Virus record (IMG/VR): IMGVR_UViG_3300042923_001076
Span: 1-25,492 of that record
From: a virus
DNA length: 25,492 nucleotides
Strand: one strand, 5' to 3'
Part shown: positions 1 to 10,298 of the stretch, in pieces
Layout: each line of letters begins with the position of its first letter
Numbering within the stretch: position 1 is the stretch's first letter
Notes under the pieces: model-generated
The model's input: the letters and a program-made list of their open reading frames with translations, nothing else
Told to the model about the DNA's origin: nothing
Database searches by the model: none
Made by a program: the position numbers and the translations under genes

Positions 1-1682
1 CTCTGAAATTCATCCATTGGAACAGGTTTGCTAAAAATATATCCTTGTATTTCATCACAAGAGATTTCCCTTAAGAAAGTTAATTCTTCCTTTGTTTCAA
101 CACCCTCAGCTACTACTTTCATTCCTAAACCATGGGCTAAATTCATAATTGATTTTACGATAAGAGCATCTGATTCATTGTTTGTAAGGTTTCGAATAAA
201 TGACTTATCAATTTTTAATACATCGAACTTAAATTGAGTTAAATAAGAAAGCGAAGAATACCCTTTACCAAAATCATCCAAAGATACTTTAATGCCATGT
301 TTCCTTAATATCTTAATCCTTGATTTTACTAGTTCCTGGTTATCTAATATGGAAGTTTCAGTTATTTCGATTTCTATCCATTCCCCATCTAGTTGAGTTT
401 TATTTAACACTTTTTCAACATTATCAATAAAATTCTTGGATAAAAAATGACCAGCAGAAACATTTATAGAAATCGGTACAAAAGGTATCCCTTTATTTTG
501 CCATGATTTAATTTGCATACAAACTGTTCGTAAAACCCATTGAGAAAGAGGATATATTAGTCCAGTTTCGTCTGCTATAGGAATAAATTCACTAGGTAAT
601 ATCATTCCCCATTCTGGGTGATTCCAACGAACTAAGGCCTCGGCACTTATAATTTCCCCTGTTTTCCCGTTTACTCGTGGTTGATAATACATCTCTAGCT
701 TATTTTCTTGTATAGCTAAGCGAAGGTCTTTTTCAAGTGAGAATCTTTTAAAAGTGTAAATATCCATTATTGGATTAAAAAAGGTATAGGTATTTCTTCC
801 TTTTGTTTTTGAACGATAGAGAGCGATATCTGCATTTTTCAATAATGATTTAAAGTCTTTACCATGCTGTGGATAAAAACTTATTCCTATACTAATAGTT
901 GTATAAAATTCATAATCATTTATTTGGAAGGGTGTCTCAGCGATATAATTTATAACGCTTTTAGCAAATAAATCTATAGCATCTTTTTTTATGAATTGCT
1001 TGTCCAAAATAATACTAAATTCATCGCCACCCACACGAGCTACAAATCCTTTGTTTTCAAAAATTTGAGCTAATCTTACAGATAATTCCTTAATTAATTG
1101 ATCTCCAATGGTGTGCCCTAATGTATCGTTTACATTTTTAAACCTGTCAATATCTAAATATAACAAGGCAAATGAGTTTTTATTGTTTTTAGTTTGCTCC
1201 AATAATTGTTCTATTTTTTTTCCGAAAAACCTTCGATTAGGAAGGTCAGTTAAATAATCATGATAAGCCATATGTTTTATAGCCTGTTCGTTAATCTTTT
1301 GTTCAGTAACATTACATGCATAGCCAACTAAACCATCATTAAAAGGAAATACCTTAACCTCCAGCCATTCTTTTGTTGGCTCATAGTAATCCTCAAATGA
1401 TATTGGGATTACTTCCTGCATAGCTTTATGGTAATAATGATAAAATTTTGACCCTATTGCTTCAGGAAGTACATCCCAAATAATTTTTCCAATAAGTTCA
1501 TCTCGACTTTTTCCAACAAAGTTTTCCATTTGTTTATTAGTATATTTTATAATCCAATTGCTCTCTAAAATAAAGAAACCATCAGTTATATTTTCTAAAA
1601 TTGCTTCGCTTTTTGGCAAAGTGAGTACCTTGTCTCTGTGTATTTCATCTTTTTTTAATAACTTATTTTTAAAAAAACTCAT
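1..1682 (-). CDS. PAS-GGDEF-EAL c-di-GMP cyclase/phosphodiesterase (3' end cut by window)
   Basis: I translated this gene by hand from the ATG at 1682, preceded by AAGGTGA; it stays open to base 1, giving about 560 residues. Residues about 26-130 look like a PAS sensor. The GGDEF domain carries an intact GGDEF at 218-222. The EAL domain starts near 320 with EAL at 348-350, followed by the family's other catalytic stretches: NVSAGHF, EITETS, DDFGKGYSSL, LKIDKSF and AEGVET. The stretch ends at SKPVP, close to the normal end of EAL domains, so only a few residues are missing. The product-inhibition RxxD site before GGDEF is absent (ENKG sits there). No membrane segment is seen, so it is probably cytoplasmic. 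By family knowledge, GGDEF makes c-di-GMP from GTP and EAL hydrolyses it; with both motif sets intact the net activity cannot be told. The leader holds a c-di-GMP riboswitch, which supports the assignment. Confidence 0.95.
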   Translation of the reverse strand, partial: MSFFKNKLLKKDEIHRDKVLTLPKSEAILENITDGFFILESNWIIKYTNKQMENFVGKSRDELIGKIIWDVLPEAIGSKFYHYYHKAMQEVIPISFEDYYEPTKEWLEVKVFPFNDGLVGYACNVTEQKINEQAIKHMAYHDYLTDLPNRRFFGKKIEQLLEQTKNNKNSFALLYLDIDRFKNVNDTLGHTIGDQLIKELSVRLAQIFENKGFVARVGGDEFSIILDKQFIKKDAIDLFAKSVINYIAETPFQINDYEFYTTISIGISFYPQHGKDFKSLLKNADIALYRSKTKGRNTYTFFNPIMDIYTFKRFSLEKDLRLAIQENKLEMYYQPRVNGKTGEIISAEALVRWNHPEWGMILPSEFIPIADETGLIYPLSQWVLRTVCMQIKSWQNKGIPFVPISINVSAGHFLSKNFIDNVEKVLNKTQLDGEWIEIEITETSILDNQELVKSRIKILRKHGIKVSLDDFGKGYSSLSYLTQFKFDVLKIDKSFIRNLTNNESDALIVKSIMNLAHGLGMKVVAEGVETKEELTFLREISCDEIQGYIFSKPVPMDEFQ

Positions 1683-1804: not shown

Positions 1805-1890
1805 GTATCGGTAGCTGGCTGACATGGATTAGTATCCTTTAGTCACTTTGCTTTGCGTCACCACCTTTTGATGGGTTTGCCATTTTCAAG
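1805..1890 (-). promoter_or_regulatory. Cyclic-di-GMP-I (GEMM-I) riboswitch aptamer
   Basis: Read on the minus strand, the hallmark segments of the GEMM-I class appear in order: GGCAAACC (1881-1874), a short hairpin with an A-rich tetraloop, the conserved GACGCAAAGC (1859-1850), a CTAA-containing stem, and CAGCCAGCTACCG (1821-1809). It sits about 120 nt upstream of the GGDEF-EAL start codon, about 10-20 nt after the predicted transcription start, and is followed by a terminator. Gene context (c-di-GMP metabolism) agrees with the ligand. Recognition is from consensus memory; no covariance search was run. Confidence 0.87.
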
Positions 1891-1907
1891 AAGAAATTCC
1901 AAATCCT

Positions 1908-1936: not shown

Positions 1937-1978
1937 TTAGATAACTTTCGCATTGCAGTGGAATTAATATATCTAATT
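1935..1978. repeat. 9-bp inverted repeat upstream of the GGDEF-EAL promoter
   Basis: AATTAGATA (1935-1943) and TATCTAATT (1970-1978) are perfect inverted copies. The left arm overlaps the -35 box of the minus-strand promoter. It could be an operator; AT-rich chance occurrence is also possible. Confidence 0.3.
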
Positions 1979-2007
1979 CTTAAACTAACCTGCTTCGTTC
2001 GTATTAT

Positions 2008-2050
2008 AAGGTTAGCCAGAATGCTAAATATTTCTGGTTGACCTTTTTTT
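2008..2050 (+). terminator. Strong plus-strand hairpin with T tract at the left edge of the IS110 element
   Basis: A 14-bp stem with two G-U wobbles is formed by 2008-2021 and 2032-2045 around a 10-nt loop, and is followed by an unbroken T run to 2050. It looks like an intrinsic terminator on the plus strand. No plus-strand gene is visible before it. It could shield the IS from readthrough, or be the site the IS inserted beside. Its right arm contains the TTGACC used as -35 by the next promoter. Confidence 0.65.
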
Positions 2051-2067
2051 ATATGGTCTTATTATAA
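2038..2067 (+). promoter_or_regulatory. Promoter for the IS110 non-coding RNA/transposase
   Basis: TTGACC (2038-2043) and TATTAT (2060-2065) are 16 bp apart; TTATAA (2062-2067) is an alternative -10 at 18 bp. Transcription would start near 2070-2075, right at the beginning of the structured non-coding region. The -35 probably lies outside the element in the left flank. Confidence 0.6.
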
Positions 2068-2069
2068 CA

Positions 2070-2250
2070 GTAGCCAGGGTAGAACGTAACTGCTCGTGGG
2101 GCTACGACCCCGTCAGCTAAACGGTTCGCCCCCTACTTGTAGAAACATGATTGAGGCTGGTTGGGACTTAGATCTCGTATAACAAGCGAAGCTGTGACAC
2201 TGCATGGAGGATTTAGGGGTACTGGCAAATCACTAGTTTAGGAGGAGGAT
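2070..2250 (+). ncRNA. Candidate IS110 bridge RNA (5' non-coding region)
   Basis: About 180 nt of GC-richer, non-coding sequence lie between a good promoter and the transposase start, matching the position and approximate length of bridge RNAs in the IS110 subgroup. Visible pairings include GTAGCC (2070-2075) with GGCTAC (2100-2105), GGGG with CCCC (2098-2101/2108-2111), CCCCTA with TAGGGG (about 2129-2134/2214-2219) closing a large domain, and ACTGG with CTAGT (2221-2225/2233-2237). Some are mutually exclusive, so the true fold is unknown. CAGCTAA (2114-2120) is complementary to TTAGCTG (3616-3622) next to the proposed right end, and TATAACA (2178-2184) repeats LE bases 2063-2069; both are possible guides but near chance level. 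Confidence 0.6.
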
Positions 2251-2255
2251 TTGGA

Positions 2256-3491
2256 ATGAATCCAGTCGTTGGTCTGGATATTTCAAAAGGGGAAAGTCAA
2301 GTTCAAGCATTTTTAGATAAAGGCAAACCATACCGTAAGAGTTTTAAAGTATCTCATACTATTGAGGGGTTAAGTTATCTTGTGTCGTTTCTGGATGATG
2401 TAAAAAAAGAGTCTGGTAAAAAGCCTTCAATCATTCTAGAAGCTACGGGGCATTATCAAACTCCTGTTGTTCATTATTTGGAAGAGCGAGGTTATTTGTT
2501 AATTATTATCAATCCGTTGATCTCATACAAAGCAAGAGGTTCAAGTTTAAGAAAAGTAAAAACAGATGCCATAGACGCCTATCTTCTTTGTGAGTTGTTC
2601 TATAAAGAGGAATTAGAGCCTTATAAAAAGCGTGGTGTCCAGTTATTAAATCTACGCAACCTTACTAGGCAACATGAAAATATAACTGGAGTGATGATTC
2701 AAACAAAGCTTCAATTTCAGGCAGTGCTTGAACAAGTGTTTCCTGAATATAAAGGGGTTTTTGGAGATTTATATTCGGTGGTGTCACTATTAACTCTTTC
2801 AGAGTTCCCTTCTTCTGAGGATATTTTGAATGCAAGCGAAGAAGTAATTACAGACAAGATAAATGGTCTTTGTAAGAGTCGATCAAGCAGGTGGGCAAAG
2901 GAAAAAGCGATTCAACTTAAAGCTGCGGCTGCACGTAATCCTTTTGAAAAGACAGTCTATCAGAGTCATATTTTAAGCCTTGGTATGTATATTAAAATGA
3001 TTCTTCAATACAAAGAGCATCTAGCAAAGTTAGAGTCAGAGATAGATGCCCTCGCTAAAGGTATTGAAGAATATAATATCATCAAATCTATTCCTGGTAT
3101 TGGAGAAAAAATCGCTGCAACGATTATTTCAGAGATTGGGGAGATAGATAGATTTAATGACCCTAAAAAGCTTGTAGCATTCGCTGGAGTTGATCCTAGT
3201 GTCTTTGAATCTGGTAAGTTTACAGCCACAAAGAATCGAATCACAAAACGAGGGTCAAGTAGGCTTCGTCACGCCTTATATATGGCTGTTCGTTGTGCGA
3301 TTCGTGATTGCCGTAAAAAGAAAACAACGGATGAAATCATCCCTCGCAACATGAAAATGCGAGAGTTTTACGACAAGAAACGTGGCGAAGGAAAACCCTT
3401 TAAAGTAGCTGTAATTGCATGTGTAAATAAACTCTTACATTGGATATTTGCCCTTTTAAAGAACAGAACCACTTTCCAAGATATAGCTTAG
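2256..3491 (+). CDS. IS110-family transposase/recombinase (DEDD)
   Basis: The product has 411 residues, usual for the family. The N-terminal RuvC-like DEDD domain shows D8 (GLDIS), E62 (LEATGHY), D104 and D107 (KTDAIDAY). The C-terminal Transposase_20 region includes the helix-hairpin-helix-like SIPGIGEKIAATI, then LVAFAGVDPS, a Ser-Gly (FESGKF) and TKRGSSRLRHALY; by family knowledge this domain supplies the catalytic serine used with the DEDD site. Family members cut and rejoin DNA under guidance of a bridge RNA that pairs with target and donor. The start is well supported by AGGAGGAGG seven bases upstream of ATG. The gene is intact, so the element may be active. It is transcribed away from the GGDEF-EAL gene and toward the phage block, opposite to the phage genes. 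Confidence 0.96.
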   Translation: MNPVVGLDISKGESQVQAFLDKGKPYRKSFKVSHTIEGLSYLVSFLDDVKKESGKKPSIILEATGHYQTPVVHYLEERGYLLIIINPLISYKARGSSLRKVKTDAIDAYLLCELFYKEELEPYKKRGVQLLNLRNLTRQHENITGVMIQTKLQFQAVLEQVFPEYKGVFGDLYSVVSLLTLSEFPSSEDILNASEEVITDKINGLCKSRSSRWAKEKAIQLKAAAARNPFEKTVYQSHILSLGMYIKMILQYKEHLAKLESEIDALAKGIEEYNIIKSIPGIGEKIAATIISEIGEIDRFNDPKKLVAFAGVDPSVFESGKFTATKNRITKRGSSRLRHALYMAVRCAIRDCRKKKTTDEIIPRNMKMREFYDKKRGEGKPFKVAVIACVNKLLHWIFALLKNRTTFQDIA

Positions 3492-3503
3492 AACCAAAAT
3501 AAA

Positions 3504-3552
3504 CCAAATAACACAAAACCTTCCAAAACCAAAATAACGGAAGGTTATTTGG
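3504..3552. repeat. Inverted repeat/hairpin in the IS110 3' non-coding region
   Basis: AACCTTCC (3517-3524) pairs perfectly with GGAAGGTT (3539-3546). CCAAAT (3504-3509) with ATTTGG (3547-3552) extends the stem across a bulge. No T tract follows, so it is not a classical terminator. It may protect the transposase mRNA 3' end or be a structural part of the right end. Confidence 0.5.
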
Positions 3553-3644
3553 CATGCACATTTTTAGTATAGCATGATATATTTTAAGTTTTTAATGAAA
3601 AATATTGACAAACTATTAGCTGGTTTAGTTAAAGAAAAGTTGAT

Positions 3645-3672
3645 AAAAAAGCACCCTATCATTCAGAGCGCT
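3645..3672 (-). terminator. Intrinsic terminator at the end of the phage late operon
   Basis: On the minus strand, AGCGCTC (3672-3666) pairs with GGGTGCT (3656-3650) with G-U wobbles, and the stem runs into six T. The 5' arm begins inside the last codons of the 55-aa ORF. Confidence 0.75.
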
Positions 3673-3826
3673 TCTTTTTGCGATATTCCTCAATCATTTT
3701 TTCCTCTTCGATGAATTCAATCATTCTGGCATTCACCCAAGTTGCTTTCCAATTTCTTTTTGTTTGTTTAATTGAAGACCTTGGAGAGCAATAATAACAC
3801 CAAGTATCCCCACAATAACAGTCCAT
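3659..3826 (-). CDS. Small Cys-rich phage protein (55 aa, possible zinc knuckle)
   Basis: ATG at 3826 to TGA at 3659. The protein begins MDCYCGDTWCYYC, a compact CxC-x4-C-x2-C cluster that could bind zinc, followed by a basic/aromatic stretch and a highly charged helix ending in KKKRSE. Short proteins with CxCGDTxC-type starts occur in phages of Gram-positive hosts (family memory only). It lies directly downstream of the tail-fibre gene, and its stop codon is embedded in an intrinsic terminator, as expected for the last gene of the operon. The best Shine-Dalgarno (AAGGGG) is rather far (about 16 nt) from this ATG and better placed for an overlapping frame, which lowers confidence. Function is unknown. 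Confidence 0.55.
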   Translation of the reverse strand: MDCYCGDTWCYYCSPRSSIKQTKRNWKATWVNARMIEFIEEEKMIEEYRKKKRSE

Positions 3827-3834
3827 GTTTTCAA
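3733..3834 (-). CDS. Alternative overlapping ORF: 33-aa single-TM peptide
   Basis: TTG at 3834 lies 8 nt after AAGGGG and opens a frame encoding one strongly hydrophobic segment (WTVIVGILGVIIAL) followed by a short polar, basic tail. It overlaps the 55-aa ORF completely in another frame. It resembles small membrane peptides found near phage lysis genes, but at 33 residues it is shorter than usual holins. Either frame, or both, may be translated. Confidence 0.3.
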   Translation of the reverse strand: MKTWTVIVGILGVIIALQGLQLNKQKEIGKQLG

Positions 3835-3849
3835 ACCATCATCCCCTTG

Positions 3850-3878
3850 AATAAAAATAGAGAGCATAGTAGGCTCTC
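3850..3878 (-). terminator. Intrinsic terminator after the tail-tip gene
   Basis: GAGAGC (3878-3873) and GCTCTC (3865-3860) form a 6-bp stem with a 7-nt loop, followed on the minus strand by TATTTTTATT. It separates the 1659-aa tail gene from the small ORF, whose ribosome binding site begins just after the T tract. Confidence 0.7.
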
Positions 3879-3894
3879 CAAATGTTTTATTTTT

Positions 3895-6800
3895 TTAAGC
3901 AGTCCTTTTCCACATATATACTGTTATATATGGTTGTAAATTATTATGGGCAGCGCCCCCACCAGCACTTCCAGTCACACCCGTTTTATCAATAATGTTT
4001 GGGTAGTTCCTGTTCGTACCGTCTCCTACCCCAGAGCCAGAAGAACCATAAGTAGTATGGGTGTGTGCTGGTATCTCAGAAGTGGTTAATGTGTGTGTCT
4101 TTGCTCCCCCAGTTTTCTCTACAGTGTTAAATGATGTATCACCTGTATTTATACCAACTAAAGTTCTACCTGAAGCAAATGCTACCCAAGTACCACCGAA
4201 TAATGTAGCTGGACTAGTTGAAACAACAGACATGTATATTGCACCGACTGGATAAACAGTGTCTAATATTGTTTTACCTCTTTGGTAAATGTCACCAGAA
4301 ATTTTGAGTGATGCATCCACATACAGTTCAAGGAAACTTTGCCACGTACCATAAATATTATTAAAGTGTTGTAGTTTTAACTTTTTTTCCGATACGTGAA
4401 ATTCTATTGAACCATCCTCGGTTTTATCTGCCTTTAAGTTTTGCATTCTTAATCTTGTATACCCTTCAGTGTTTACGGGTTTTCTAATCTCAACAATAGG
4501 AGATGATAGATTTCCGCTGAAATCACCTGTTACCCCTGATATATTACCTGCTATCACATTACCTAAATCGGCAGATAAGGCACTTAATTTTTCCACACTG
4601 AATACATCAGATAGCATTTTCGTTTCTGTCCAAAGTCCATTCCATTTATAAATACCTATTACTTTTCCATTGCTGTCTGTTTTAAACCAAGTTGCATTAG
4701 TTGCCGGATTGCTAGGAGCAGTAGGGCCCATATGAGCAATTCCGTCTGCCCCCTTTGGGCCTGTTGGGCCTACTGGACCTGTTGGACCTGTTGGGCCTGT
4801 TGAACCCTTCCCACCAGTGATGCAAGCAGGATTACTATATACAACAGTACCACTCGTATAAACTGTCTTTGTTCTACTCCAAATATACCTTCCGTCAACC
4901 CACGTAGGAGAAGTTGTCTGCCATGCTCCGCCTGTTTGAGTTGTTGCAGAAGTAGACAAGTAATATTCCACATCAACTGAAGAGATCCCATTACCTGTTG
5001 AACCTTGCCCACCAGAAACACATATAGGGTTAGTTGTGGATGTTGAAGCATCAGAATAAGTTATAATACTCCTAGTCCACATGAATTTTCCATCAGCCCA
5101 TGTTGGGACTGTCGTACCCCATGCACCTCCAACTTGAGAGGTACTTGAAGTTGATAGGTAATATTGTTCTACTATTGAGGTTATTCCTTTACCATTTGAT
5201 CCCTTAGCTCCTGTTATGCATACAGCATTGCTGTAGGAAGTTGAACTATCAGTGTATACTGTCTTTGTTCTTGACCACATATATTTACCATCAGCCCATG
5301 CTGGAGCAGTTGTTGACCATGCCCCTCCTGCTAAAGCTGTGGCAGATGTAGAAAGGTAATATTCAACATCTACAGAGGTTATTCCTTTTCCTCCATCACC
5401 TTTAGGACCTTGAGGACCTTGAGGCCCTTGAGGCCCTTGAGATCCTGTGACGTTCACTGGTGTTGTTGTCGATGTTGATGAATCTGTATATGTGATTATA
5501 CTTCTTGTCCACATGTACCTGCCATCAATCCAAGCAGGAGGAGTACCCACCCATGATCCTCCAGTTTGAGTTGTTGCTGATGTTGAAAGGTAGTATTGTT
5601 CAACAATTGAAGTAACACCTTTCCCAGTATCTCCTTTTTCACCTTTTGCTCCCGTAATACAAACGGCTGTGCTTTCAGATGTAGTACTATCCGTATATGT
5701 TGTGACCGTTTTTGACCACATATATTTGCCATCAACCCAAGTTGGTGCGGTAGTTGTCCAAGCCCCTCCTGTTAATGACGTTGCAGAGGTGGACAGGTAG
5801 TACTGAACATCAACTTTAGTTATCCCTTTACCTGAATTACCAGTAGATCCTTGAGCGCCAGTAACACATATAGGAGTAGTTGTTAGAGAAGTAGAATCTG
5901 AATATGTTATTATGCTTCTCGTCCATATAAATTTACCATCAACCCATGCAGGAGCTGTTGTACTCCAAGCACCACCAGCTTGAGATGATGAAGACGTTGA
6001 TAAATAATATTGTTCTACTATAGATGATACTCCTTTTCCAGTATCACCCTTTTCGCCTTTCGCACCTGTAATGCAGGCAGGATTACTTTCAATAGTTGAG
6101 TTATCAGTATACTTTGTGATTGTTTTACTCCACATATATTTACCATCAGACCAAGCTGGAGCAGTAGTAGTCCAAGAACCTCCAACTAATGAAGATGATG
6201 ATGTTGATAAATAATATTGAACATCTACAGATGAGATACCTTTTCCCGTAGGCCCTGCAGATCCTGTCACACAGATAGGTAATGTTGTGGATGTTGTATT
6301 ATCTGTGTAAGTTATAGTGCTTCTTGTCCACATAAATCTTCCTTCGACCCAAGCTGGCGATGTATTAACCCATGTGCCTCCTGTTTGTGTAGTCGCTGAT
6401 GTTGATAAATAATATTGTTCAATGATAGATGAAATACCTTTTCCTGCCTCACCCTTTTCTCCTTTATCACCCTTAACCTTATTCCAAGTATATGCTGCTA
6501 CATTATTACTATCTGCTTGGATGAAATCTACATATGTGCCGATCCAGATCCCAACATTTTCCCCATTATTTGCAGTAAATGTAGATCCTCCATCATCTGA
6601 ATATTTGACATGCAAGTATGATGTCTTACCTTCAGGCCCTATCTCACCCGGAATCCCATCATTACCTTTTATTAATGACCATTTATAAGATGCATAACCA
6701 GTTGGAGCTGATGAAGTTGTTGTTGTAGCAATTCCGATATATAATGCTCCTGTTGGCACATCTGTCATAGGGTTTCCGTTACTATTTGCACTATATTTTA

Positions 6801-8874
6801 CCCACAAATAGGAACTTGAACCATCGGCACCTTTTTGACCTGGCTGCCCGTCAAAATAGTCCACACCCTTGATTGGTGTGTATCCGTCCTCACCTTTGAC
6901 TTTATTCCAGGTGTAAGCACTAAAAGTCATGCTGTCCGCTTCGACAAAGTCCACATAAGTGCCGATATATTTACCGACTGTCTCCCCGTTATTTGCGGTA
7001 AAGCTTGTACCATTATCCGAATATTTTATGTGTAAATAACTGGTTCGTCCGTCCGGACCTTTTTCTCCTGGTGTACCATCGGTGCCTTTAACCAATGACC
7101 AAGAATAACTTGCGTATCCTGTTGGGGCAGCACCAGTAGTCGTAACAGCTGTACCAATATATCTTGCATCTGTTGGGTCGGTGGTCATAGGATTCCCGTT
7201 TGCATTTTGAGAATATCGTACCCACAAATAAGAGGATTGACCGTTTTGACCGTCCTTCCCGTCAATATAATCTGTGCCTTTTACGGGGGTGTATCCCGGG
7301 TCTCCTTTATCTCCCTTATCGCCTTTTATAAGTGCCCAAGTGTAATCTGCTGGATTAGTTGATTCCTGTGTTTCTGTCTTGTTGTGCACTAAACCTATAT
7401 ACAATTTACCATTTGGATTATCACTCATATTTAACCCACTGGCATTATCTGCGTATTTTATCCACGTATAAGTAGGTTGTCCGTCAGAACCTGCGGGTCC
7501 CCGAACACCTTGCGGACCAACAAACAATGACCAAACGTAATCACTCGAATCCATGGATGGCGTCTCCCCCGTTTGATTATACGAGAAACCAATATAGCTT
7601 TTACCTGATGGATTGTCGCTCATATTAGCTCCCAAGTCATCATCAGCATACATAACCCAAGTGTAGCTTCCGCCTGTAGGTATCCATTTATTTAGAGTAC
7701 TATCCCAAGTGTGGGCAATCTCAACTGACCCGCCTGTTTTAATCCAAACAGTGTTTTTTCTACCCATAGGAGCCGTAGGAGACTTAATAACTTTTGTACC
7801 ATACAGAGCTTGTAAATCTCTCCATGTCCTCATGATGTCCTCTTGCTTATACTCGATGACCTCGCCAAGTTTAAAAGTCTTTTTGGACTTATCAAACACA
7901 GAGCGCTCAACGGATATGACTCGGCTGTCTAAGTACATCGGTGGATTAAATTGCTCATCCTTTACCTTTGTTGTGTCACCTAACCTCGTTTTTTCGTGCT
8001 CATATCCAAATATGTGCTCAAGGCTTACCGCCTCAATTTCGTATTCTACAGCTGCTGCAATCCGCTTATTTAATTCCATGTTCCCTAGAGATGTTAATCT
8101 CTCCATTGTCATGTCCTGGTCAGAGGATTGCGGCTCATAAATCTCGACCAAATGCTTGCCTTTTCGGTTCCAGTTTTGGTAGGCAGCATCGTTACTTACG
8201 ATTGTCTCAAGCCGTTTTCCATCTTCTTTTTCAGGACCTAGGCAATGCAAGGCGGTCACAATGCGGTCAGAGTGTCTTTTACGGGTAATGCCGATTAAAT
8301 CCTTGCCGACTACTATCTCTTTGCCTCTGTCCATGCCCTGTTGCTTTAAAAAGTCTACATATCGTCCGGTTACTTTATAGCCATCTGTGGTAACTCTAAA
8401 CCGCAACTCGCACTCAAATAATGAAGCGATCGCTTTAAGAGCAGCTAAGGCACCGATATGCTTATCGATTGTCCATTTGCGTATGATAAAGACATCTACC
8501 ATGCCCAATTGCCAATCGTCTATGCCCTCTAGCACCATGTTTGCCGCTGTGCTAACGGTTTGACTTTCCAATTCTCGTGGAGCAATCACTTTAGCTTTTG
8601 TTAAATCTGTAAAGGATCCGACACTGTAAACCTCTTTTGAGTGATTAGCTGTAGATTCATAAATATAATCCACAATAAACTCTCTGTAATCGCCATCCTC
8701 GGCAGGGATGAGGATACGAGAGCGGTCACCTACTAGCTCCGCTCCTGGCTCAATAACAGACACTACAAAGTCATAGAATTCCTCATTTTTTACTGTATTA
8801 ATATGCCTATCCGATAAAGCTTTGCTAATCCAGCCCACAATCTGGTCCGTTTGATGATGCAATATGTGTATCAT
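3895..8874 (-). CDS. Tail-tip endopeptidase/receptor-binding protein with tandem repeats (Tal-like, 1659 aa)
   Basis: The start is best placed at ATG 8874: GGAGGG lies 10 nt upstream and the ATG overlaps the Dit stop as ATGA; an in-frame GTG at 8892 is less likely. Residues 1 to about 390 look like the prophage tail endopeptidase family (Tal, hub of the siphophage baseplate). From about 400 to 810 run six repeats of the pattern YxW(I/V)xY...YIG...YxWxLxKG, separated by collagen-like Gly-X-Y stretches. From about 810 to 1360 run eight KGI(S/T)S...YYLSTS...GG.W...W.DG...W repeats. After another GPTGPTG stretch comes a coiled/beta region. The last about 120 residues resemble a tail-collar/short-fibre tip: YPVGAIYMS, FGGTW, HTHT near 1602 (possible metal site), and LQPYITVYMWKRTA at the end. 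It likely binds the host surface at the tail tip. The frame is intact and very long for a Tal protein. Confidence 0.9.
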   Translation of the reverse strand: MIHILHHQTDQIVGWISKALSDRHINTVKNEEFYDFVVSVIEPGAELVGDRSRILIPAEDGDYREFIVDYIYESTANHSKEVYSVGSFTDLTKAKVIAPRELESQTVSTAANMVLEGIDDWQLGMVDVFIIRKWTIDKHIGALAALKAIASLFECELRFRVTTDGYKVTGRYVDFLKQQGMDRGKEIVVGKDLIGITRKRHSDRIVTALHCLGPEKEDGKRLETIVSNDAAYQNWNRKGKHLVEIYEPQSSDQDMTMERLTSLGNMELNKRIAAAVEYEIEAVSLEHIFGYEHEKTRLGDTTKVKDEQFNPPMYLDSRVISVERSVFDKSKKTFKLGEVIEYKQEDIMRTWRDLQALYGTKVIKSPTAPMGRKNTVWIKTGGSVEIAHTWDSTLNKWIPTGGSYTWVMYADDDLGANMSDNPSGKSYIGFSYNQTGETPSMDSSDYVWSLFVGPQGVRGPAGSDGQPTYTWIKYADNASGLNMSDNPNGKLYIGLVHNKTETQESTNPADYTWALIKGDKGDKGDPGYTPVKGTDYIDGKDGQNGQSSYLWVRYSQNANGNPMTTDPTDARYIGTAVTTTGAAPTGYASYSWSLVKGTDGTPGEKGPDGRTSYLHIKYSDNGTSFTANNGETVGKYIGTYVDFVEADSMTFSAYTWNKVKGEDGYTPIKGVDYFDGQPGQKGADGSSSYLWVKYSANSNGNPMTDVPTGALYIGIATTTTSSAPTGYASYKWSLIKGNDGIPGEIGPEGKTSYLHVKYSDDGGSTFTANNGENVGIWIGTYVDFIQADSNNVAAYTWNKVKGDKGEKGEAGKGISSIIEQYYLSTSATTQTGGTWVNTSPAWVEGRFMWTRSTITYTDNTTSTTLPICVTGSAGPTGKGISSVDVQYYLSTSSSSLVGGSWTTTAPAWSDGKYMWSKTITKYTDNSTIESNPACITGAKGEKGDTGKGVSSIVEQYYLSTSSSSQAGGAWSTTAPAWVDGKFIWTRSIITYSDSTSLTTTPICVTGAQGSTGNSGKGITKVDVQYYLSTSATSLTGGAWTTTAPTWVDGKYMWSKTVTTYTDSTTSESTAVCITGAKGEKGDTGKGVTSIVEQYYLSTSATTQTGGSWVGTPPAWIDGRYMWTRSIITYTDSSTSTTTPVNVTGSQGPQGPQGPQGPKGDGGKGITSVDVEYYLSTSATALAGGAWSTTAPAWADGKYMWSRTKTVYTDSSTSYSNAVCITGAKGSNGKGITSIVEQYYLSTSSTSQVGGAWGTTVPTWADGKFMWTRSIITYSDASTSTTNPICVSGGQGSTGNGISSVDVEYYLSTSATTQTGGAWQTTSPTWVDGRYIWSRTKTVYTSGTVVYSNPACITGGKGSTGPTGPTGPVGPTGPKGADGIAHMGPTAPSNPATNATWFKTDSNGKVIGIYKWNGLWTETKMLSDVFSVEKLSALSADLGNVIAGNISGVTGDFSGNLSSPIVEIRKPVNTEGYTRLRMQNLKADKTEDGSIEFHVSEKKLKLQHFNNIYGTWQSFLELYVDASLKISGDIYQRGKTILDTVYPVGAIYMSVVSTSPATLFGGTWVAFASGRTLVGINTGDTSFNTVEKTGGAKTHTLTTSEIPAHTHTTYGSSGSGVGDGTNRNYPNIIDKTGVTGSAGGGAAHNNLQPYITVYMWKRTA
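4800..6446 (-). repeat. Eight tandem ~68-aa repeats arranged as four alternating pairs
   Basis: Repeat starts fall near 6446, 6246, 6041, 5836, 5626, 5394, 5198 and 4998. Odd units read SIVEQYYLSTS...MWTRSIITYxD...PICVTG; even units read SVDVEYYLSTS...MWSRTKTVYTD...ACITG. The basic duplication unit is therefore an odd-even pair of about 400-440 bp, copied four times. The protein is well conserved between copies while third codon positions differ widely. Confidence 0.85.
6447..7690 (-). repeat. Six carbohydrate-binding-like repeats with collagen-like linkers
   Basis: Units share (S/T)Y.W..Y......M...P....YIG and YxWxLxKG, followed by GDKGDKGDPG or GTPGEKGPDG linkers. Units three and five are near copies, as are four and six (SYLHxKYSD...FTANNGE), so a two-unit block was duplicated here as well. 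Two units are followed by YTPxKGxDYxDG, a motif common in phage fibres. Confidence 0.75.
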
Positions 8875-10298
8875 AGATAAGCGTCCCTCCACTCTGTCCT
8901 AACTTCTTGTATTACCTCTGGAGGATTATACACGAGCTTATTGCTACCTTTTTGCAATTTAAAAAAGCGAGCGCCAAAGTCTTTTTTGGTAAACAGCTCG
9001 CCGTTTTTAAGTATTTTGCTTGTTTTGTGGTCAAAGGTAAACACGTCACCGGCAATCCCGATATAAGGCACTTGATTATCCGTAAGAGTGTTAATCTTGT
9101 AGACTTTAATATCCTCAATCGACATCGGACTTGGCGCGTGTGTGCTGTTGCAACCTATGTGTAAGACCACATAGGCCGCTTTGCGTGTAAACTGATTAGC
9201 CACGTCTGTCCACTCAATCCACCGCTGGGCAGTATGCCGGCCATTTACAAACTTAGTAACGTAAGCCGTCCACTTGTTGCCTACACGGGTAATCCGCAAC
9301 ATGCCCTCAAAGTTAATCCAAGTGCTCCAAGCGTCCCCACGCTCATTTATGATAAAGTGGTTATTGTCTCTGTCCCCTGCTCGAAGCTCGGCATAATTGC
9401 CGTCTGTGCCTGTTGAGTTATCTTTTAGCGCCAATTTACAGACAGCTTGCTTGTTACCATCTAAAATATATACCTCAACTCTACCAACTTTTGCATTACT
9501 ATCATTTTTTAAGTTTAATAGGACCTCTGCCTCAAAGTCTGTCAATGATTGCCCGATTGACTTAATACCAGCAGGACCGTGCCAACTGCTACCGGTGCCA
9601 TAATTATCCGTGTAAAATTGGTAGCCGTTGCTTTTCAGTACGCCCGCGACCGTGCCCCCGTCTATATCAGAGTTTTGAGCTGTGGCCCACCCGACTGTTG
9701 TGGATAGCTGGTCCCAAAAAATACGCTCGCGTTCAGGTAATACGATGTCGTCAATTTTAGCAGGCTGTCCAATACGCATATAGTCATTAGCTCCGATAAT
9801 GTCCAGATAGGTCGTAGGCTGTTTAAGTGTGACTGTGATCACGGGTGCTGTCTCTGCTGTGCCTCCTGCATTATAAATGACAGGTAATTCAAGATTTGTG
9901 GACTCGACTACTTTTGGGTAGGTGTATTTATAGGGGTCTGGGCAAATAAAAGTAATCCAACCCTCTCCTGCCGTCACCATCTCCTTTAAATCAGTGGAAC
10001 CATCTACTGCAGCATAGTATAAACAATCAGGCTCGTCTGGCAGGATTAACTCTGCAGGAGAATTTGCGACCAACCAATAGGCTAAATCTTCCTTTAGCTT
10101 TTGCAAATCTTTGAAATCAGTGTTTCCTACCAATACTCTAACCATAATCGGTCTAGGCTTTGTCTCCGTGTCCTGCAAGTACCCACCAGGCATGTTTGGG
10201 ATAGTTAGGATATTACGTGTTAATGGTGCGTAAGGAGGCCTGACGGTCTCCAAAACTGTAATATAAGGCTTAGTCATACCATTAAATTTTATCGACAA
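8871..10298 (-). CDS. Distal tail protein (Dit) with inserted domain
   Basis: 475 residues, roughly twice a minimal Dit. The N-terminal about 180 residues (a ring-forming, Sipho_tail-like region, with LTIPNMPGGYL and a conserved CPDPYKY) and the C-terminal about 70 residues fit the family. Between them, about residues 190-400, lies an insertion rich in W and beta-strand pattern (FWDQLSTTVGW, NYGTGSSWHGPAG, FEGMLRITRVGNKWTAYVTKF) that resembles a concanavalin-like carbohydrate-binding domain, as in 'evolved' Dit proteins. It would form the hexameric baseplate ring between tail tube and Tal and may add host-surface contacts. The start is a TTG at 10298 with GAGGAGG 9 nt upstream. The stop overlaps the next gene's ATG. 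Confidence 0.85.
   Translation of the reverse strand: MSIKFNGMTKPYITVLETVRPPYAPLTRNILTIPNMPGGYLQDTETKPRPIMVRVLVGNTDFKDLQKLKEDLAYWLVANSPAELILPDEPDCLYYAAVDGSTDLKEMVTAGEGWITFICPDPYKYTYPKVVESTNLELPVIYNAGGTAETAPVITVTLKQPTTYLDIIGANDYMRIGQPAKIDDIVLPERERIFWDQLSTTVGWATAQNSDIDGGTVAGVLKSNGYQFYTDNYGTGSSWHGPAGIKSIGQSLTDFEAEVLLNLKNDSNAKVGRVEVYILDGNKQAVCKLALKDNSTGTDGNYAELRAGDRDNNHFIINERGDAWSTWINFEGMLRITRVGNKWTAYVTKFVNGRHTAQRWIEWTDVANQFTRKAAYVVLHIGCNSTHAPSPMSIEDIKVYKINTLTDNQVPYIGIAGDVFTFDHKTSKILKNGELFTKKDFGARFFKLQKGSNKLVYNPPEVIQEVRTEWRDAYL

What the first reader, a model, noticed from the sequence alone, without database searches (positions are those of the whole stretch)
2038..2255. Candidate bridge RNA of an intact IS110 element
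A promoter, about 180 nt of structured non-coding RNA and an intact DEDD recombinase gene follow one another, the layout of RNA-guided IS110 recombinases. Such systems are programmable by their loops, and this one, from a Firmicute prophage border, may have a distinct target.
Basis: partly seen in the sequence, partly recalled or inferred. Interest (0 to 1): 0.75.

Follow-up and report, generated by a model that had tools for sequence, protein, structure and literature searches.

The report
IS110 bridge RNA targeting Bacillus cassette repeats
This is a jumping gene of the known RNA-guided IS110 type, with an intact enzyme and a well-supported guide RNA; the unusual point is that its guide sends it into a family of repeated, integron-like recombination sites in relatives of Bacillus.

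Summary
Window 2000-3624 is a complete IS110-group element: a left end of about 256 nt carrying a structured non-coding RNA, a 411-aa DEDD recombinase with all five catalytic residues, and a 133-nt right end. Across 60 relatives the RNA follows the IS621 plan (5' stem-loop, target-binding loop, donor-binding loop). 99% of proposed pairs are kept, nine pairs carry compensatory changes, and no shuffle equals the covariation score. Guide bases co-vary with the flanking target: at one position guide A goes with target T in 8 of 8 elements, with at least three changes on the tree. The likely main promoter spans the joined ends of the circle. The target is one half of a dispersed ~95-bp inverted repeat; the predicted empty site occurs exactly in two related genomes. 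These repeats form same-orientation arrays with single small ORFs and a 279-aa Xer-like recombinase: an integron-like system in Bacillaceae for which I found no description. The element is a new member of a known kind. Transcription and activity are inferred, not shown. The integron-like target is the most novel part and was followed only partly.

The parts
1977..1997 (+). left half of the interrupted target site (TTCTTAAACTAACCTGCTTCG)
   Evidence: differs between elements at the same place; matches unoccupied repeats
1998..1999 (+). left core TT (placement within GTT inferred)
   Evidence: rejoining of flanks fits natural empty sites best in this phase
2002..2007 (+). TATTAT, -10 box of the circle-junction promoter
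   Evidence: TTGAC[AT]-spacer-TA[AT]TAT in 63 of 64 elements
2011..2042 (+). 5' stem-loop of the RNA (GTTAGCCAG ... CTGGTTGAC)
   Evidence: at least 8 of 9 pairs in 61 of 63 elements, with some paired changes
   Evidence: present; frequency at chance level, TTGACC kept in 58 of 63
2073..2226 (+). bridge RNA body closed by helix 2073-2076 / 2223-2226
   Evidence: two of four pairs with compensatory changes in 23-29 sequences
2077..2131 (+). target-binding loop: outer stem 2077-2085/2124-2131, inner hairpin 2097-2112
   Evidence: 98-99% paired, six pairs with changes on both sides
2088..2097 (+). left target guide AACTGCTCGT
   Evidence: co-varies with the left flank, 0 of 5,000 within-class permutations as good
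2113..2120 (+). right target guide TCAGCTAA
   Evidence: co-varies with the complement of the right flank
2146..2196 (+). donor-binding loop: outer stem 2146-2149/2193-2196, inner hairpin 2163-2176
   Evidence: 99-100% paired but mostly invariant
2156..2162 (+). left donor guide GCTGGTT, same as the element's right end
   Evidence: sequence identity to 3620s terminus; both nearly invariant
2179..2190 (+). right donor guide AT...CGAA, complement of left terminus TTCG.AT, interrupted
   Evidence: AU with terminus AT versus UU with terminus AA in the other clade; one clear exception, L042
2240..2248 (+). ribosome-binding site AGGAGGAGG
   Evidence: sequence
2256..3491 (+). IS110 recombinase, 411 aa; D8, E62, D104, D107, S319
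   Evidence: residues invariant in 44 relatives
3492..3624 (+). right non-coding end, with TTGACA (-35 of the junction promoter) at 3605-3610
   Evidence: conserved to this point in relatives
3625..3626 (+). right core TT
3627..3639 (+). right half of the interrupted target site (AGTTAAAGAAAAG)

Best explanation
Window 2000-3624 is an intact IS110-group insertion sequence whose left end encodes a bridge RNA. In the excised circle the right-end TTGACA and the left-end TATTAT come together and should drive transcription of the RNA and then the recombinase; an internal promoter may add transcripts in the integrated form. The first internal loop (guides 2088-2097 and 2113-2120) pairs with the two strands of a genomic target. 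The second (2156-2162 and 2179-2190) pairs with the element's own joined ends. The recombinase swaps strands at a TT core and the element inserts into one half of a dispersed attC-like repeat (here CTAACCTGCTTCG/TT/AGTTAAAG). Shown by comparison: ends, RNA structure, guide-target covariation, catalytic residues, target family. Inferred: transcription, RNA binding, circle formation, recombination.
For: IS110 recombinase with invariant DEDD and Ser. Precise ends in 60+ relatives. RNA covariation, 0 of 500 shuffles. Guide-target covariation within guide classes, 0 of 5,000 permutations, Fisher p = 5e-7 at one position and at least three changes of the guide base on the tree, followed by the target. 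Junction promoter in 63 of 64. Natural empty sites.
Against: No transcript data. Folding energy is not below shuffled sequence. The left guide of the window matches its own target only in part (CTGCT, then a one-base offset), and the right guide has one mismatch and one wobble. Permutations and shuffles only partly correct for common descent. Donor covariation rests mainly on one clade split.
Confidence: 0.9

Rival explanations
1. The upstream structure is an ordinary 5' leader that regulates translation or attenuation of the transposase, and the protein alone chooses the target.
For: The RNA directly precedes the ribosome-binding site, and the 5' stem-loop is followed by a T run (sequence).
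Against: A leader does not explain why loop bases match each element's own flanks and switch with them.
Confidence: 0.05
2. Guide-flank resemblance is inherited rather than functional: elements and sites were copied together.
For: Many elements share sites and ancestry; class A and B are large clades.
Against: Within-class permutation remains significant; sister elements L011 and L012 differ in guide and target together; left-guide class changes at least six times on the tree.
Confidence: 0.04
3. For the target: the repeats are ordinary REP-like intergenic palindromes, not recombination sites of a cassette system.
For: IS110-family elements are known to target REP sequences (PMC11208160, PMC11187229); many repeats stand alone between genes.
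Against: 109 neighbouring repeat pairs in the same orientation and none opposed; largest ORF on the strand opposite to the repeat in 65 of 76 intervals; homologous segments bounded by repeats; a dedicated 279-aa tyrosine recombinase in the arrays.
Confidence: 0.3

Closest known systems
IS621 and its bridge RNA (IS110 group; PMC11208160, PMC11208158)
   Same: DEDD plus Ser recombinase; RNA of similar size in the left end; 5' stem-loop, target loop, donor loop; promoter across the circle junction; two-base core with nearly invariant second T; interrupted right donor guide; repeated palindromic target.
   Different: Recombinase 411 aa against about 326, with a longer middle part; core TT instead of CT; an extra helix closes both loops; right target guide about 8 nt against 4; five instead of two-three bases interrupt the right donor guide; target is an attC-like repeat of Bacillaceae.
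IS1111-attC elements such as ISKpn4 and ISPst6 (PMC11187229)
   Same: RNA-guided IS110-family elements that insert into recombination sites of gene cassettes.
   Different: IS1111 group with the RNA in the right end and subterminal inverted repeats, in Gram-negative integrons; here the RNA is in the left end and the sites are a different, Bacillaceae repeat.
Integrons (attC arrays with IntI; PMC9024848)
   Same: For the target only: same-orientation arrays of inverted-repeat sites, mostly one small ORF per unit, a tyrosine recombinase, two short box pairs (CTAAC/GTTAG) separated by a spacer.
   Different: Recombinase is Xer-like, 279 aa, far below the integron-integrase cut-off (82-104 against 265 bits); boxes differ by one base from the attC consensus I recall (RYYYAAC/GTTRRRY); the recombinase gene lies between repeats itself; no attI identified.

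Membership tests
IS110 family recombinase | DEDD_Tnp_IS110 and Transposase_20 domains with DEDD residues and catalytic Ser | tested here: met
   PF01548 103 bits, PF02371 92 bits; D8, E62, D104, D107, S319 aligned to IS621, invariant in 44 relatives
IS110 group (against IS1111 group) | bridge RNA in the left end, upstream of the gene | tested here: met
   covarying RNA at 2011-2230, upstream of 2256; right end is 133 nt
IS1111 group | guide RNA in a long right end | tested here: not met
   the covarying RNA with target-matching loops lies in the left end
Bridge RNA system | two internal loops whose bases pair with target and donor | tested here: met
   target loop by covariation; donor loop by complementarity and one co-varying base
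Bridge RNA system | promoter reconstituted at the circle junction | tested here: met
   63 of 64 elements by sequence; activity not measured
Bridge RNA system | RNA expressed, bound by the recombinase and required for recombination | not testable with these tools
   needs RNA-seq and biochemistry
Integron (for the target arrays) | integron integrase (IntI) by curated model | tested here: not met
   TIGR02249 over cut-off in 0 of 17 genomes; array recombinase 82-104 bits against 265
Integron (for the target arrays) | array of recombination sites in one orientation with cassette ORFs between | tested here: met
   109 same and 0 opposite neighbours; 65 of 76 ORFs on one strand
Integron (for the target arrays) | attC structure with paired R and L boxes | tested here: inconclusive
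   box symmetry visible by eye, but RNAalifold gave no consensus pair on alignment A2

The most novel reading that the evidence does not exclude
A lineage of IS110 bridge RNAs has specialised on the recombination sites of a so far undescribed integron-like cassette system in Bacillaceae. Different elements carry guides for the 5' half, the 3' half or the reverse strand of the same site, so that RNA guides track a mobile cassette system.
Probability: 0.6. Interest if true: 0.75.

Novelty: new member of a known kind. Interest (0 to 1): 0.45.

Why it matters
It gives a well-defined, naturally varied bridge-RNA family from Bacillaceae: over 60 related RNAs with known ends, targets and guide switches, useful for testing guide rules. 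Its target points to same-orientation cassette arrays with their own recombinase in a phylum reported to be nearly free of integrons (PMC9024848).

Tried and rejected
Single-sequence folding: not below shuffles. Rfam: no bridge RNA hit. IMG/VR relatives of the recombinase: none. Second copy in the window's own record: none. Host of the window: the left flank found only short 63-85% matches in 17 related genomes. Phage relatives by DNA: only short weak matches. Right core placed one base earlier (rejoined GTTTAG): rejected because unoccupied sites mostly read GTTAG or a variant of that length, and 36 of 49 rejoined sites fit the repeat better in the later phase, 13 worse. True integron integrase: none above cut-off. 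Papers on integrons or cassette arrays in Bacillaceae or Bacillota: nothing matching in the held library, which lacks preprints and most subscription journals. I did not find a one-to-one pair of occupied and empty alleles of the same locus.

Full report
What was checked. The window is a 25,492-bp IMG/VR virus record with no other copy of the element. ORF 2256-3491 encodes a 411-aa IS110 recombinase, related by sequence to IS621 and ISCro4 in the PDB (E about 1e-24). Aligned to IS621, its catalytic residues are D8, E62, D104, D107 and S319 (the serine of 'ESG', matching IS621 S241). All five are invariant in 44 intact relatives.

Element ends. A scan of GTDB genomes returned 79 loci, nearly all from Bacillaceae and neighbouring families, at 57-96% identity. 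In nearly all, DNA similarity begins at about window 1962-1999 and stops at about 3626-3650, while the flanks beyond differ. The left terminus is (TT)CGTATTATAAGG and the right terminus TTGACAAACTATTAGCTGGT(TT). Joining the flanks at the TT core reproduces the unoccupied repeat. For L009 the rejoined site scores 87.5 bits against a repeat profile, and over all sites this phase fits better in 36 and worse in 13. The window's predicted empty site, CTAACCTGCTTCGTTAGTTNAANAA, occurs with no mismatch in two related genomes and with up to two mismatches in 15 of 23, and never for the reversed control pattern. A few left cores read AT instead of TT; IS621 likewise tolerates change at the first core base but hardly at the second (PMC11208158). 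The exact placement within GTTT remains inferred.

The RNA. Energy alone does not support structure (z = -0.25 and +0.57). Comparison does. In 60 distinct sequences RNAalifold finds a closing helix (2073-2076 with 2223-2226), a target-loop outer stem (2077-2085 with 2124-2131), an inner hairpin (2097-2101 with 2108-2112) and donor-loop stems (2146-2149 with 2193-2196, and 2163-2176). With the predicted guide-to-guide pairs left out, 25 pairs keep 99% pairing, nine have changes on both sides, and 0 of 500 shuffles match the covariation score. The closing helix switches between GCCAG/CTGGC and GTCGG/CCGAC among relatives. A 5' stem-loop precedes it in 61 of 63 elements. The shuffles do not correct for relatedness; the slid controls do, and fall to 32-51% pairing. 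The donor-loop stems are nearly invariant and so are the least tested part.

Promoter. In the circle, TTGACA of the right end lies 18 nt (17 if the core is placed one base earlier) before TATTAT of the left end; 63 of 64 elements have this arrangement. It is the layout reported for IS621 (PMC11208160). Either promoter would make an RNA with both loops, starting near 2014 or near 2072. The 3' end is not known.

Guides. The left guide falls into classes: CTGCCC-like (A), GCACCC-like (B) and GGGTGC (C, L045-L047). Left flanks carry the same strings, down to variants such as GCCTCC (L028) and GCACCAG (L023). The right guide (UCA[AG]CUAA) is the complement of the right flank (TTAG[TC]TGA). Within guide classes, matches exceed permuted pairings for both guides, with 0 of 5,000 permutations as good. 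At the base next to the core, all eight elements whose guide has A instead of U have T instead of A in the target (Fisher p = 5e-7 on the seven with full flanks). On the recombinase gene tree this guide base changes at least three times, once between sisters L011 and L012, and the left-guide class at least six times. The donor loop carries GCUGGUU (as the right terminus) and AU...CGAA (complement of left terminus TTCG.AT). In the other large clade the terminus reads AA and the guide UU, with one clear exception, L042. This split is mostly one evolutionary event, so donor covariation is suggestive only. In the window itself the right guide makes six pairs, one wobble and one mismatch with its target, and the left guide shares CTGCT.

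The target. The consensus site is TTCAACTAACCTGCCCCGTTAGTTGAA (12 of 17 genomes within 3 mismatches, up to 26 copies, reversed control zero). It is half of a longer element, TTCAACTAAC-CTGCCCC-GTTAGTT...AGCTAAC-GCACCC-GTTAG. Class A guides fit the 5' half, class B the 3' half, class C the reverse strand of the 3' half. The two halves together resemble an attC site: outer and inner box pairs CTAAC/GTTAG around a spacer. I read this from the sequence; RNAalifold on the repeat alignment returned no pairs. The window's own site matches the repeat profile only over its left half (E about 2e-4), so it is a partial or decayed copy.

The arrays. In the fetched stretches, neighbouring repeats within 3 kb have the same orientation in 109 cases and opposite in none; in 65 of 76 intervals the largest ORF lies on the strand opposite to the repeat. 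Cassette-like ORFs include an acetyltransferase, a HAD hydrolase, a transporter and unknown proteins. Some segments are 92-97% identical between genomes and bounded by the repeats. One such segment carries a 279-aa XerC/D-like recombinase. Full or near-full copies above 480 bits occur in about 16 of 43 genomes related to G016, against about 130 bits for ordinary Xer proteins. In one chromosome it lies a few kb before about 18 repeats spread over about 25 kb. The stretches were chosen because they hold repeats or the recombinase, so the counts describe such regions, not whole genomes. IntegronFinder 2.0 reported a single complete integron in Firmicutes (PMC9024848). My full-text searches found no description of these arrays, but the library is incomplete. 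IS1111-type elements that insert into attC are known (PMC11187229).

Verdict. Bridge RNA of an intact IS110-group element: well supported by comparison, not by experiment. It is a new member of a known kind. The integron-like target is the part that would surprise a specialist and deserves its own study.

Noticed in passing
L097, L098, L110-L113, L128-L129 and others (Bacillaceae genomes): Integron-like arrays: attC-like repeats all in one orientation, single small ORFs between them, and a 279-aa Xer-like tyrosine recombinase that itself lies between repeats and is about 97% identical in different surroundings. No description found in the held literature.
   Followed up: partly
window 1807-1891 (-): c-di-GMP-I riboswitch (61 bits) upstream of a PAS-GGDEF-EAL gene at 3-1682 (-); the IS110 element sits about 100 bp upstream of it, near where its promoter should be.
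   Followed up: partly
window 3640-3895: Remnant coding sequence between the element and the phage tail gene; no complete lysis or integrase gene was recognised next to the tail end, so the prophage border here may be eroded.
   Followed up: no
L020, upstream of 3752: The left flank of this element ends in CTATTAGCTGG, the right terminus of the same IS type: apparently one copy inserted next to another copy's end.
   Followed up: no
window 3895-8892 (-): 1,665-aa tail protein with collagen-like GPTGP stretches and many repeated YYLSTS...GG.W modules.
   Followed up: no
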